From: Hydnum rufescens UP504
Lineage: Eukaryota; Basidiomycota; Agaricomycetes; Cantharellales; Hydnaceae
Assembly (NCBI GenBank): GCA_014904985.1
Contig: MU128934.1
Coordinates: 265,313 to 329,312 of the forward strand
Direction: 5' to 3'
Length of the DNA: 64,000 bases
Every line of letters starts with the position of its first letter. Position 1 is the stretch's first letter. A model generated the notes under the pieces. It worked only from the letters and a program-made list of their open reading frames with translations. It did not search any database and was not told the origin of the DNA. A program made the translations under genes and the position numbers. This document shows, in pieces, positions 9,337-12,139 of this stretch.

Positions 9337-9503
9337 GCTGCTCTGACGAAGCTCGGAATGATCCGAAAATCAAAACACGATTACATGCTAGGTTTCATTT
9401 TAACCTTGCAAACAAAACCACCTGATTGTTATCAGAATGTTCCTAGTGCTTATCTTCACTGTACGAACTACCGAAATTCAAAGGACTTTGGGCAACCTCT
9501 ATC

Positions 9504-10138
9504 AGGACCCCTGCGAGCCCTAGGTGAACCGGTATCCGGCCCATCTGGGATCTCCCTCTAGAACACCGGAATTTTTGGCTCAAATTTGCTCCCAAAATAC
9601 GTGAATTTTTTGCCTCGGTTGGTCCGAAGCACCTAAAATACGTGAATTTGACCCCTAGGTCCCAAAAAAGCCCCAATCCCCCCAAATCGCTCCCAGGCGC
9701 TCCCTGGTGCTCCCAGGCACTCCCAGACCCCCCAGAACTGCCCCAGACCCTTGAAAGTTGCCCGGCCAGCCTCAGCTATCCTCTCCCTCGGTTTCATCCC
9801 CTTCCTCCGGCTGCTTACCACGTAGATTTTTCCCCCTTTTTGAGCCAAAACAAATACTCCAAAAACAAACTCACGCTATCCAGGAATCAAAGCCAAGACC
9901 TCTTGGTATGATTTTCCACTGGCACTTACACCCAGCCCACTGTCCTATCCACAGGGATTCCCGGAATTCAACACCTATGTTCCTCACCGCATGGGGAAAC
10001 CAATCCCGGAACTGGCACCCATGTTTAGGCCGGTTTTTTTGGCCAAATCCCGGAATTTTACGCCTATGTTTTCGGTCAAAATTGACCTCAGGACACCGGA
10101 ATTGGGATACCGGTTCACCTAGAGCTCGCAGGGGTCCT
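9504..10138. mobile_element. hAT-type MITE with 8-bp target duplication
   Basis: The terminal inverted repeats begin AGGACCCCTGCGAGC at 9504 and end with the complement at 10138. They match over about 34 bp (left ...CCTAGGTGAACCGGTATCC; right arm 10105-10138 with two or so mismatches). The flanks are perfect 8-bp direct repeats CCTCTATC at 9496-9503 and 10139-10146. An 8-bp duplication is the hallmark of hAT-superfamily insertion. The 635-bp interior has no transposase; it holds repeated GCTCCCAGGC-like and AATACGTGAATTT motifs. It is therefore nonautonomous. Confidence 0.85.
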
Positions 10139-10234
10139 CCTCTATCGTGGCGTAAGCTGCATTCTCAGCGATTGCCGAGATATTTCCAAATACCGCCCGT
10201 CCCTTGATCTTATCTTATATCGGCCTCTCGGCGG

Positions 10235-10330
10235 TGTTGAGACGGATATAGGCTTGATTACATAATGTACATACTTCGTGTTTCTCTTCTACATGTGCGT
10301 TACGCTTCCGCCGAGCACCGTCGCTCATTA
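10235..10330 (+). repeat. 5' LTR of the miniature element
   Basis: 96 bp starting TGTTGAGACGGATATAGG and ending GTCGCTCATTA. It is identical base for base to 11001-11096. It begins TG and ends TA rather than the usual CA. Confidence 0.9.
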
Positions 10331-10344
10331 GGTTATGGGCCCAT
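10331..10344 (+). promoter_or_regulatory. Primer binding site for half tRNA-iMet
   Basis: GGTTATGGGCCCAT abuts the 5' LTR. Its complement ATGGGCCCATAACC covers the GGGCCCATAACC anticodon region of initiator tRNA-Met, with the CAT anticodon inside. This implies priming from an internally cleaved tRNA, as in copia-lineage elements. Confidence 0.8.
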
Positions 10345-10359
10345 GCGGCATTGTAGGAG

Positions 10360-10701
10360 GCGGCAGTAAAAACCGCAGCGGCAGGAAAAACCGCCTAAAA
10401 CCCTCACTCGAGACACGAGGTCTGCCAGTAAAAAGCAGCGCGGCAGTAAAAACCGCACCTAGGCGCTTGTGCCAGTAAAAAGCCAAGGCCTGACCCTGGG
10501 CCAGTAAAAAGCCCGAACCTTCCGCCAGTAAAAAGCGGCGCGGCAGTAAAAACCGCACCTAGACGCTTGCGCCAGTAAAAAGCCAAGGTCTGAACTCTGG
10601 GCCAGTAAAAAGCCCGGAATCCTATCTTCACCACCTCCCGTTGGCTTGGACCAGTAAAAGTTCACCCCAACGACCTTGGATTTGCGCCAGTAAAAAGCCA
10701 A
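10360..10701 (+). repeat. Array of 12 hairpins sharing a CAGTAAAAA loop
   Basis: The nine-base string CAGTAAAAA (one copy CAGGAAAAA, one CAGTAAAA) occurs 12 times, each flanked by self-complementary arms that differ between copies. Stems: GCGG/CCGC at 10360, 10378, 10440 and 10540; CTGC/GCAG at 10422; CCGC/GCGG at 10522; GGGC/GCCC at 10498 and 10599; CTTG-n-GC/GC-CAAG with a one-base bulge at 10466 and 10566; GGAC/GTTC at 10648; TTG-n-GC/GC-CAA at 10682. The arms vary together, so pairing rather than sequence is kept. The repeats lie in the first half of the miniature LTR element's interior. No function is known to me. Confidence 0.85.
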
Positions 10702-10987
10702 GCCCGACTCTCCCTCCGGTCCAAGCTCGACCGCCTATCTTATTCACTTTCACATTCCCCATTCGTACTCACTCGGAGTCCCGCTGTTAACATTCCACCC
10801 AACACAAAATCCGAATCCACAACCGTCATCGGTCCCACTTTCCCACGGATTGGACTCCCATTACGACCTTCGCACCATTTTCCTTTGCTTCACCCCGGAA
10901 ACCAAACTCTCAGCACATATTGCTATTTTCAAGGAGGACAATTGTATATCCAAAGGCACCCCGCATGCTCTCTAGGGTCACTATGCA

Positions 10988-11000
10988 GGTTGAGGGAGGG
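10988..11000 (+). promoter_or_regulatory. Polypurine tract
   Basis: GGTTGAGGGAGGG immediately precedes the 3' LTR, in the place where plus-strand DNA synthesis of LTR elements is primed. It includes two T, so it is not a pure purine run. Confidence 0.65.
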
Positions 11001-11096
11001 TGTTGAGACGGATATAGGCTTGATTACATAATGTACATACTTCGTGTTTCTCTTCTACATGTGCGTTACGCTTCCGCCGAGCACCGTCGCTCATTA
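11001..11096 (+). repeat. 3' LTR of the miniature element
   Basis: Identical to 10235-10330, followed by the GGCGG target duplication at 11097-11101. Confidence 0.9.
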
Positions 11097-11101
11097 GGCG
11101 G

Positions 11102-12139
11102 TTGGTGTCCATTATGTTCCTGAAGAAGTGGCTTTCATCAGTTGGAATCTGGTGTGATCATGTATGGCTCTCGCTCCATTCCGACTTGGGGAACGTCTCA
11201 TATCATTGTCCTCCTATGCTCTGTTATCCAACGTCTTGGCCGCATGATTGATAATTTTCTACTGCCTATTGCTTATTGGTGGCCACTGCAGCCATGTCGT
11301 TTTCAAATACTCTGCTTCAATTTTAGCTCATCCCGGGAGCTCTGTATATTGAGCTCGTCTATGCGATCCTAAGCATGTCGTACCTGACTTTTGTGGATCC
11401 CTCAAGGGACTTCCCTTCCTCACACCAAGAACTTCGCTGGATTCTTACTGCAGGTACGTCACTCTTACAAAAGTAGATTTCGCTGACCATAGGCTGAGCC
11501 GAGTGAAGTTTGAACCGAACACTAGTCCTTTCCTTTTCCTCCTGCCCGAATCAACAATTCAATTTTAATCATCTGGACACCACTTCTGGGTGAGATGCCA
11601 GGACTTTCAAGTTAATCTTGGATGTAGCGTTACTATCTTGTTATATCTCCAGCCAAGTTCCTTCTCATACTACACTTTCTAACTCGCGAGTGTTTCATAC
11701 CCAGCAAGCGTTTGACATCTGTGGGCAAGGATTGTTTGATCGCGTATTCCTTCGAATCTCCATCTGCAAATATATTTCCATGTTATCCTTCGGTACATAA
11801 GTTGTTCTCGAACTTGGTAAAAAATTGTTGCCGGGATGCAACGTGCGTGCGTTTCGGGGCATTGCTACTCCGCAAGACGAGCCGCACACTGCATTTTACA
11901 CTGGATCGCTGTATACGCAAAGTACCGCAGTATTATTCCAGGATCCATGATCGTTATGGAAGTGAGGATTGCCCTCCTTCGAAGCGCTTGCCTCTATTTC
12001 CGGGTTTCCGGGGAGAACCCGGCAAGGCGGGGAAGGCGACACGCCTCGAGGGCATGGACAACCGATGTAGCGGCCGTTCGTGGAGTGGATATCCTACGGT
12101 ACGATGGACACGACTGAATCCGAGAACGGGAAGCGCATG
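11102..12139. other. No gene recognised
   Basis: Open frames up to 143 codons occur on the plus strand (11712-12143), with others overlapping in different frames. None shows a domain, signal peptide or plausible exon chain. It lies between the miniature LTR element and gene A. Confidence 0.35.

What the first reader, a model, noticed from the sequence alone, without database searches (positions are those of the whole stretch)
10360..10701. Twelve hairpins with one constant loop and covarying stems
The string CAGTAAAAA sits in the loop of 12 short hairpins whose stems differ (GCGG/CCGC, CTGC/GCAG, CCGC/GCGG, GGGC/GCCC, GGAC/GTTC and a bulged CTTG-n-GC/GC-CAAG) yet stay complementary. Simple duplication would copy stems too. 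Changing both arms together while the loop stays fixed suggests selection on RNA or single-strand DNA structure with a loop-binding partner, for example a packaging or dimerisation signal that lets a nonautonomous element use a helper. I know of no described family with this feature.
Basis: seen in the sequence. Interest (0 to 1): 0.86.

Follow-up and report, generated by a model that had tools for sequence, protein, structure and literature searches.

The report
Hairpin array in a mini retrotransposon leader
A small, recently inserted jumping element carries about twelve RNA hairpins that share one loop sequence but have different stems, and distant cousins in the same genome carry a similar array with a different loop, which suggests an address label for being packed into the particles that copy such elements.

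Summary
Window 10235-11096 is an 862-bp TRIM (96-bp LTRs, 0 of 95 compared bases different; TSD GGCGG). After its PBS lie 12 CAGTAAAAA-type loops (10 exact), closed by about five stem types. Arms of different types rarely pair (1 of 116), and 0 of 20,000 re-pairings reach the observed pairing.

The covariation reading is half right. Different stem types each pair, but across 14 copies of the same array covariation equals shuffles: copies decay mostly at CpG, as neutral decay would.

The array is the 5' leader of a gag-only copia element; some copies still carry (broken) gag after it, and the TRIM is a gag-deletion derivative. Five copies of a related gag-only family (Gag 33-36% identical) have the same PBS and, in the same place, another constant loop, TAGTGTC, on up to six stems. 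A scripted scan of 40 other leaders with this PBS (about 16 families) found no such array.

Best explanation: a lineage-specific, multi-site Gag-binding packaging signal, kept by the coding-less element. Gag binding is inferred, not shown. Nine literature searches listed no such array.

The parts
10230..10234 (.). 5-bp target site duplication GGCGG, left copy (right copy 11097-11101)
   Evidence: read; flanks printed
10235..10330 (+). 5' LTR, 96 bp, TGTTGA...TCATTA
   Evidence: 100% direct repeat with the 3' LTR; 0 of 95 compared bases differ
10331..10350 (+). primer binding site region GGTTATGGGCCCATGCGGCA; resembles a copia-type half-tRNA (initiator Met anticodon) site, which is recalled and not verified
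   Evidence: AGGTTATGGGCCCAT occurs 234 times in the genome, reversed control 0; no matching tRNA gene found
10360..10376 (+). hairpin 1, GCGG/CCGC, loop CAGTAAAAA
10378..10394 (+). hairpin 2, GCGG/CCGC, loop CAGGAAAAA
10422..10438 (+). hairpin 3, CTGC/GCAG, loop CAGTAAAAA
10440..10456 (+). hairpin 4, GCGG/CCGC
10466..10487 (+). hairpin 5, bulged CTTG-T-GC/GC-CAAG
10498..10514 (+). hairpin 6, GGGC/GCCC
10522..10538 (+). hairpin 7, CCGC/GCGG
10540..10556 (+). hairpin 8, GCGG/CCGC
10566..10587 (+). hairpin 9, bulged CTTG-C-GC/GC-CAAG
10599..10615 (+). hairpin 10, GGGC/GCCC
   Evidence: in copies C21b and C19b it is GGAC/GTCC and in C445, C19a and C90 GGGC/GCTC
10648..10663 (+). hairpin 11, GGAC/GTTC with an 8-nt loop (weakest; no stem around a 9-nt loop in the window copy)
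10681..10702 (+). hairpin 12, bulged TTTG-C-GC/GC-CAAG with one G-U pair
10890..11000 (+). remnant of the gag C-terminal region, 84% identical over 112 aligned bases to the gag region of copy C19b
   Evidence: translation similarity
10992..11000 (+). polypurine tract GAGGGAGGG next to the 3' LTR
   Evidence: read
11001..11096 (+). 3' LTR, identical to the 5' LTR

Best explanation
The array is the 5' leader of a small copia-type, gag-only retroelement family and of its gag-deleted TRIM derivatives, of which the window copy is one. In the element's RNA it forms a row of short stem-loops that show the same single-stranded word (CAGUAAAAA) about twelve times; the stems only hold the loop open, so their sequence is free if the arms match. 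The family's own Gag, with a CCHC zinc knuckle, most likely binds the loops cooperatively and so selects this RNA for packaging. The coding-less TRIM keeps the array, so it can be packaged by Gag from gag-bearing relatives, while reverse transcriptase and integrase come from a third, pol-bearing copia element. A sister gag lineage uses another loop word (UAGUGUC) in the same place, as expected if loop and Gag co-diverged. SHOWN: element anatomy; loops and stems; gag-only relatives; second array; absence in the sampled other leaders; TRIM copies of one form at several sites. INFERRED: RNA rather than DNA as the acting form, Gag as the partner, packaging as the function, the source of pol, and that an intact Gag of the CAGTAAAAA family exists (the copies seen here have stops).
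For: Position: between PBS and gag, where retroviral packaging signals lie. C21a is a contiguous LTR-PBS-array-gag-LTR copy; the window keeps only a gag remnant. Gag has PF14223 (E 3.8e-20 for C21a; 3.1e-13 for C32), and C32 and two database relatives have a zinc knuckle just under Pfam's cut-off (20.6, 18.3 and 18.0 v 20.8 bits). Second family: C32, C70, C115, C427 and C237 are about 1.36 kb, LTR pairs 94-99% identical around gag alone, open in C32; Gag 33-36% identical to the first family's over the matched part; same PBS. Loop TAGTGTC sits on six different stems with at least 5 pairs each in C32 and C70. Specificity: counting distinct stems around one shared 6-nt loop word, 580 shuffles never exceed 2; 40 of 40 other leaders with this PBS score 1 or 2; the second family's five copies score 3-5; 7 of 11 first-family copies score at least 3. 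Stem types differ yet pair: 0 of 20,000 re-pairings of all 12 window hairpins; 32 of 32 cells v 61% shuffled on 11 chosen simple hairpins. Loops vary less than spacers at non-CpG sites (27 of 1252 v 136 of 1461 cells). The 60 and 17 exact longer-motif hits all lie in or beside this family's copies (by eye). Two different gag deletions (window form, C445) kept the array. No loop complement in the element, which favours a protein partner.
Against: No binding or packaging data. Global folding is not better than shuffles; three loops of C32 are mostly not open in local folding (0.21, 0.21, 0.44). No covariation between copies at the same hairpin. In the older subfamily copies, stem columns vary as much as spacers at non-CpG sites (55 of 478 v 82 of 684; loops 23 of 605), and in the young TRIM group there are too few changes to test (loop 3 of 638, stem 3 of 472, spacer 2 of 746). 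Strand test: allowing G-U (sense RNA) instead of A-C (antisense) helps in the TAGTGTC family (155 v 121 pairs) but not in the CAGTAAAAA family (344 v 346), so RNA sense pairing is not shown for the window's own family. The re-pairing test is weaker for the second family (116 and 82 of 20,000; mismatched arms pair in 6 of 30). Two of its five copies have broken stems (C115 3 of 5, C237 4 of 6 sites with 4 or more pairs). A deletion inside gag leaves the leader anyway, so keeping the array may be chance. A related family (C28/C33, Gag 39% identical) has the same PBS but no clear array, and C68 has no PBS found. Co-divergence of Gag and loop rests on one contrast. No pol-bearing partner was identified.
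Confidence: 0.48

Rival explanations
1. The loops bind a host RNA-binding protein that stabilises, exports or localises the element RNA; Gag is not the partner.
For: A short single-stranded word shown many times in hairpin loops is also how host RNA-binding sites can look; the array is kept without gag.
Against: Two sister gag families in one genome use different loop words, while a host protein would be shared; 40 other sampled leaders with the same PBS and host lack such arrays. Neither fact excludes it.
Confidence: 0.17
2. The array controls translation: Gag or another protein bound to the leader represses gag translation, switching RNA from translation to packaging.
For: The array lies upstream of the gag start in gag-bearing copies.
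Against: The array is present, with the same loops, in gag-deleted copies that have multiplied at several sites, where a translation switch has nothing to switch.
Confidence: 0.12
3. Unselected by-product: the array grew by tandem and segmental duplication of a palindrome-rich unit and the differing stems are decay and chance.
For: A duplication copied several hairpins; between copies the stems decay like shuffles, mainly at CpG; stem columns vary as much as spacers in the older copies; CTGC/GCAG v CCGC/GCGG is a double CpG decay.
Against: CpG decay cannot turn GCGG/CCGC into GGGC/GCCC or CTTGnGC/GCCAAG; re-paired arms do not match; a second family has six other stems around another constant loop; 40 other leaders have none.
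Confidence: 0.11
4. The hairpins act on DNA or during reverse transcription, for example as pause or strand-transfer sites on minus-strand cDNA.
For: The array is right beside the PBS; the strand test shows no preference for the sense RNA in the CAGTAAAAA family (344 v 346 pairs).
Against: In the TAGTGTC family sense pairing with G-U is better (155 v 121 pairs; 25 v 15 of 29 sites with 4 or more pairs); a constant loop word is not needed for pausing.
Confidence: 0.1

Closest known systems
TRIM elements (terminal-repeat retrotransposons in miniature), e.g. ta-TRIM of Echinococcus (PMC4558846, passages read); TRIMs are also counted in Boletales genomes (PMC5689174, passages read)
   Same: Short LTRs, PBS, PPT, TSD, under 1 kb, no coding capacity, multiplied in trans.
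   Different: PMC4558846 says the packaging signal is conserved only as secondary structure and so hard to identify; here a concrete repeated candidate is visible.
TR-GAG elements (PMC8704663, passages read; Chaparro 2015 known only through its citation there, not held)
   Same: LTR element with gag as the only ORF; PMC8704663 reports transposition of one in Arabidopsis.
BARE1/BARE2 of barley (PMC3735527, passages read)
   Same: A copia element that cannot make Gag is packaged in a relative's particles and is said to keep packaging and dimerisation signals.
   Different: No multi-copy constant-loop array is mentioned in the passages read; loops here have no complement in the element, so kissing dimers are not suggested.
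Ty1 packaging region (PMC8396678, passages read)
   Same: 5' RNA with a packaging signal; Gag prefers it in competition assays.
   Different: That paper describes Ty1 Gag binding as high-affinity, low-specificity, with pseudoknot stems as primary sites; here repeated simple stem-loops with one loop word.
Multiple dispersed packaging signals of RNA viruses such as MS2 (PMC6281560, passages read)
   Same: Many stem-loops with a shared loop recognition motif and varying sequence around it, bound by the coat protein.
   Different: In those viruses the sites are dispersed along the genome; here they are clustered in the leader of an LTR retroelement and protein binding is untested.

Membership tests
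TRIM | Two short LTRs with TSD, PBS and PPT | tested here: met
   LTRs 96 bp and identical, TSD GGCGG, PPT GAGGGAGGG; primer tRNA not verified
TRIM | Small internal region without coding capacity | tested here: met
   element 862 bp; the only coding trace found is a gag remnant of about 110 bp
TRIM | Multiplied as a non-coding form | tested here: met
   four near full-length copies of the same form, 94-100% identical, at different sites; TSDs read for three of them
TR-GAG (for the relatives) | LTRs flanking a single gag ORF and no pol | tested here: met
   C32: 281-aa open gag between LTRs at 918-1007 and 2184-2273 of L084. In the CAGTAAAAA family gag has stops in C21a (1) and C19b (5)
Copia superfamily | Copia-type Gag | tested here: met
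   PF14223
Copia superfamily | pol order with integrase before reverse transcriptase | not testable with these tools
   no pol found in array-bearing copies; none of 150 scored RVT_2 places (of 313 candidates) lies within 8 kb of one (compared by eye)
Retroelement packaging signal | Lies in the 5' leader between PBS and gag | tested here: met
Retroelement packaging signal | Bound by Gag and needed for packaging | not testable with these tools
   needs binding and packaging assays
MS2-type multiple packaging signals | Several stem-loops sharing a loop motif, stems variable | tested here: met
MS2-type multiple packaging signals | Coat protein contacts at those loops | not testable with these tools
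   no experimental data
Known Rfam RNA family | Match to a curated covariance model | tested here: not met
   0 matches at E up to 1 for window 10200-11130

The most novel reading that the evidence does not exclude
Gag-only copia elements of this genome carry a modular RNA address: a row of interchangeable stem-loops that differ in stem but share one loop word, read by the family's own Gag. Sister Gag lineages use different words (CAGUAAAAA, UAGUGUC; both contain YAGU), so particles sort their cargo, and an element that has lost all coding stays mobile by keeping only LTRs, PBS, PPT and the address array.
Probability: 0.37. Interest if true: 0.88.

Novelty: new variant of a known kind. Interest (0 to 1): 0.74.

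Why it matters
How coding-less LTR elements get their RNA into a helper's particles is an open question, because their packaging signals are hard to recognise (stated for TRIMs in PMC4558846, passages read). Here there is a visible candidate, repeated about twelve times, with a natural comparison (same place, other loop, related Gag) and a natural deletion series (gag-bearing, gag-deleted). This makes the question testable with purified Gag and short RNAs. If right, it would extend the idea of many coat-protein stem-loops from RNA viruses to LTR retrotransposons, and would give a sequence signature by which to search for helper and passenger pairs.

Tried and rejected
Covariation between copies: tested and not found. 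A CpG asymmetry test (if RNA pairing were selected, C>T giving G-U should outnumber G>A more in stems) gave 73:50 in stems but 58:26 in spacers, so no support. Sense v antisense pairing: sense better in the TAGTGTC family, no difference in the CAGTAAAAA family (run while checking this report; an earlier count of 24 G-U among 150 pairs, allowed only G-U and is no strand test; after it I lowered the best explanation from 0.50 to 0.48 and the novel case from 0.38 to 0.37, and raised the DNA rival from 0.08 to 0.10). Constraint within the young TRIM group: too few non-CpG changes. Kissing-loop dimerisation: no loop complement in either element. Coding origin of the array: spacings between loops (18, 44, 18, 29, 29, 24, 18, 29, 30, 49, 36) are not all multiples of three and 11 of 12 loops contain TAA. 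Known RNA family: none. Initiator tRNA gene to confirm the primer: one pattern hit in which ARAGORN calls no tRNA and a second pattern with no hit, so the primer's identity stays recalled. Relatives in viral contigs: none. Family C28/C33 has TATCGGT four times in the C28 leader but no clear hairpin array. The C59 rows used another PBS upstream of its array and are no fair test of C59.

Literature: nine searches; listings read, and passages of six papers. No listed title or abstract start describes such arrays, but the library lacks most subscription papers.

Full report
What was checked. The loop word CAGTAAAAA occurs ten times exactly in the 64-kb window, all within 10364-10696 on the + strand (shuffles: mean 0.36, largest 2); two more sites carry one substitution. 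The twelve sites are flanked by complementary arms of about five types: GCGG/CCGC (h1, h2, h4, h8), CYGC/GCRG (h3, h7), GGGC/GCCC (h6, h10), a bulged CTTG-n-GC/GC-CAAG (h5, h9, h12) and GGAC/GTTC (h11). Joining 5' arms to 3' arms of other types gives four or more pairs in 1 of 116 cases (15 of 132 with same-type arms included), and 0 of 20,000 random re-pairings reach the observed total. A segment was duplicated 100 bp on, so hairpins 3-6 and 7-10 look like copies of each other; the independent evidence is the roughly five stem types, not twelve.

The element. Window 10235-11096 is a TRIM: 96-bp LTRs without a difference in 95 compared bases, TSD GGCGG, a PBS at 10331 and a purine tract at 10992-11000. 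The genome holds 39 matching places, among them four near full-length copies of this form (C26 = window, C134, C326, C65; 94-100% identical). Target duplications were read for C26, C134 and C326. Of 12 LTR-sized loci shown, 8 have perfect 5-bp duplications, 3 have 4 of 5, and 1 is followed by a PBS-like stretch and is not solo. So the coding-less form has itself multiplied, and the window copy is recent. The 60 places of GCCAGTAAAAAGC (reversed control 0) and the 17 of GGCAGTAAAAACC (reversed control 3) all lie in or directly beside copies of this family, compared by eye.

Where the array comes from. Copy C21a has, after the array, a copia-type gag (PF14223) and then the 3' LTR, in one piece. 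C19b also has array, gag and 3' LTR, but its 5' LTR and PBS lie about 4.8 kb away, with a stretch in between that I fetched but did not characterise. C21b carries gag fragments. The gags of C21a and C19b are interrupted by 1 and 5 stops; the zinc knuckle is seen, with a stop in it, in C19b and open in the database relative P0003. The window keeps about 110 bp of the gag C-terminal region (10890-11000), while copy C445 keeps a different gag piece; the pieces of C90 and C35a that were given to that search had no gag match. The array is thus the leader between PBS and gag of a gag-only (TR-GAG-like) element, and the window TRIM is its derivative.

A second family. A search with this Gag led to related gag elements. 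C32, C70, C115, C427 and C237 (Gag 33-36% identical over the matched part; 34% over 180 aligned positions for C32) are about 1.36 kb with LTR pairs 94-99% identical; C32 has an open 281-aa gag with a zinc-knuckle match just below Pfam's cut-off. They use the same PBS. Their leaders carry another constant loop, TAGTGTC, closed by GCAAG/CTTGC, GGCAA/TTGCC, CTGTC/GGCAG, TGCGG/CCGCA, ACTGTC/GAYGGT and GTTTGGC/GCYGAAC, with decay in single copies. All six have at least five pairs in C32 and in C70; re-paired arms reach the total in 116 and 82 of 20,000, a weaker result than in the window because mismatched arms pair in 6 of 30 cases. C427 keeps 6 of 6 stems of four or more pairs, C115 3 of 5 and C237 4 of 6. 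A sixth, more decayed copy, C176, was aligned but not scored. A third related family (C28, C33) has the same PBS but no clear array; in C68 no PBS was found.

Specificity. The PBS word occurs 234 times (reversed control 0; 100 places listed). I fetched 40 leaders from the first part of that list, leaving out those already held; they fall into about 16 families. A script counting distinct stems around one shared 6-nt loop word gives 1 in 37 and 2 in 3 of these 40; 580 shuffles give 1 (534) or 2 (46). The second family's five copies give 4, 5, 3, 5, 4, and C28 and C33 give 2 each. First-family copies give 5, 5, 2, 3, 3, 4, 3, 2, 4, 2 for C26, C134, C326, C65, C35a, C21b, C21a, C90, C445, C19a, and 1 for C59, where the script had taken another PBS; so 7 of 11 score at least 3. 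Counting repeated 7-mers, the 40 leaders reach at most 3 copies, C28 4, the second family 4-6 and the first family, C59 aside, 7-11.

Selection or decay? Across hairpins within the family, 32 of 32 stem cells pair, with 11 double changes against 2.9 in shuffles. Those 11 rows (8 distinct) were chosen: 8 simple window hairpins and 3 from C21a and C21b that I had seen to pair; the four bulged or 8-nt-loop window hairpins were left out. The re-pairing test above uses all 12. Across 14 copies at the same hairpins there is no excess: 91.3% paired against 91.4%, and 11 double-change cells against 11.1. At non-CpG sites, loops vary less (27 of 1252) than spacers (136 of 1461); stems give 26 of 788, or 48 of 854 when hairpin 11 is counted and thin columns are dropped, with spacers then 111 of 1371. 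In the first 125 columns of 12 copies the order is the same but the gap smaller (7 of 463, 7 of 300, 16 of 468). Split by age, the young TRIM group has no power (3 of 638, 3 of 472, 2 of 746 for loop, stem, spacer), and in the older copies only the loops stand out (23 of 605, 55 of 478, 82 of 684). So conservation is clear for the loops, and weak or absent for the stem letters, as expected if only pairing matters or if stems are unselected. Hairpin 10 shows a non-CpG series GGGC/GCCC, GGGC/GCTC, GGAC/GTCC in different copies, as expected for a stem maintained in the source lineage; it is one case. My reading: stems are kept in the multiplying source and decay freely after insertion.

RNA or DNA? 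If G-U pairs are allowed (sense RNA) instead of A-C (antisense strand), the TAGTGTC family gains (155 against 121 pairs; 25 against 15 of 29 sites with four or more pairs), but the CAGTAAAAA family does not (344 against 346 pairs; 51 against 49 of 106 sites, 5 and 10 copies). Sense RNA is therefore supported in the second family only. Global folding does not stand out, and local folding supports open loops better in the window (0.80) than in C32 (0.55).

Mechanism. A protein that reads the loop is the simplest partner: the loop word is fixed, the stems are free, and neither loop has a complement in its element. Gag is the best candidate because the array sits in the leader of a gag element, because a sister Gag lineage has another word, and because sampled other elements of the same host with the same PBS lack arrays. 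Both words contain YAGU, which may be chance. That the array is kept in gag-less copies fits a cis-acting packaging role better than a translation switch. Packaging, Gag binding and the source of pol are inferred. None of 150 scored reverse-transcriptase places (of 313 candidates) lies within 8 kb of an array-bearing copy (by eye), so a pol helper remains unidentified.

Known relatives. PMC4558846 (passages) states that TRIM packaging signals are conserved only in structure and hard to identify; PMC3735527 (passages) describes a gag-less copia parasite with conserved packaging signals; PMC8704663 (passages) reports a TR-GAG that transposes; PMC8396678 (passages) describes Ty1 Gag as of low specificity, with a preference for packaging-signal RNA in competition; PMC6281560 (passages) describes many stem-loops with a shared coat-protein motif in RNA viruses. 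Nine searches listed no paper whose title or abstract start mentions constant-loop arrays in LTR retroelements.

Noticed in passing
window 9496-10146: A short element directly upstream: 34-nt terminal inverted repeats (9504-9537 and 10105-10138, 97% complementary) flanked by a perfect 8-bp direct repeat CCTCTATC (9496-9503, 10139-10146, read), like a non-autonomous DNA transposon of a type with 8-bp target duplications.
   Followed up: no
L080 and L081 (C28, C33): A third gag-only family (LTR pairs 98% and 92.5% identical) whose C28 leader repeats TATCGGT four times without a clear constant-loop array; possibly a decayed or different version.
   Followed up: partly
L011 (C90) and L013 (C19a): Two array copies appear to share flanking DNA on both sides (motif neighbourhoods, identical 5' flank), so one probably arose by duplication of a larger segment and not by its own transposition.
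   Followed up: no
genome-wide: Stop codons inside the 150 listed copia reverse transcriptase matches are mostly TGA (by eye), which with the CpG decay in the array points to strong CpG deamination of repeats in this genome.
   Followed up: partly
window 10235-10330 and 11001-11096: The LTR begins TG and ends TA (TGTTGA...TCATTA), not the usual TG...CA (recalled); in the second gag-only family the LTR end before the PBS reads CAATA or CAACA.
   Followed up: no
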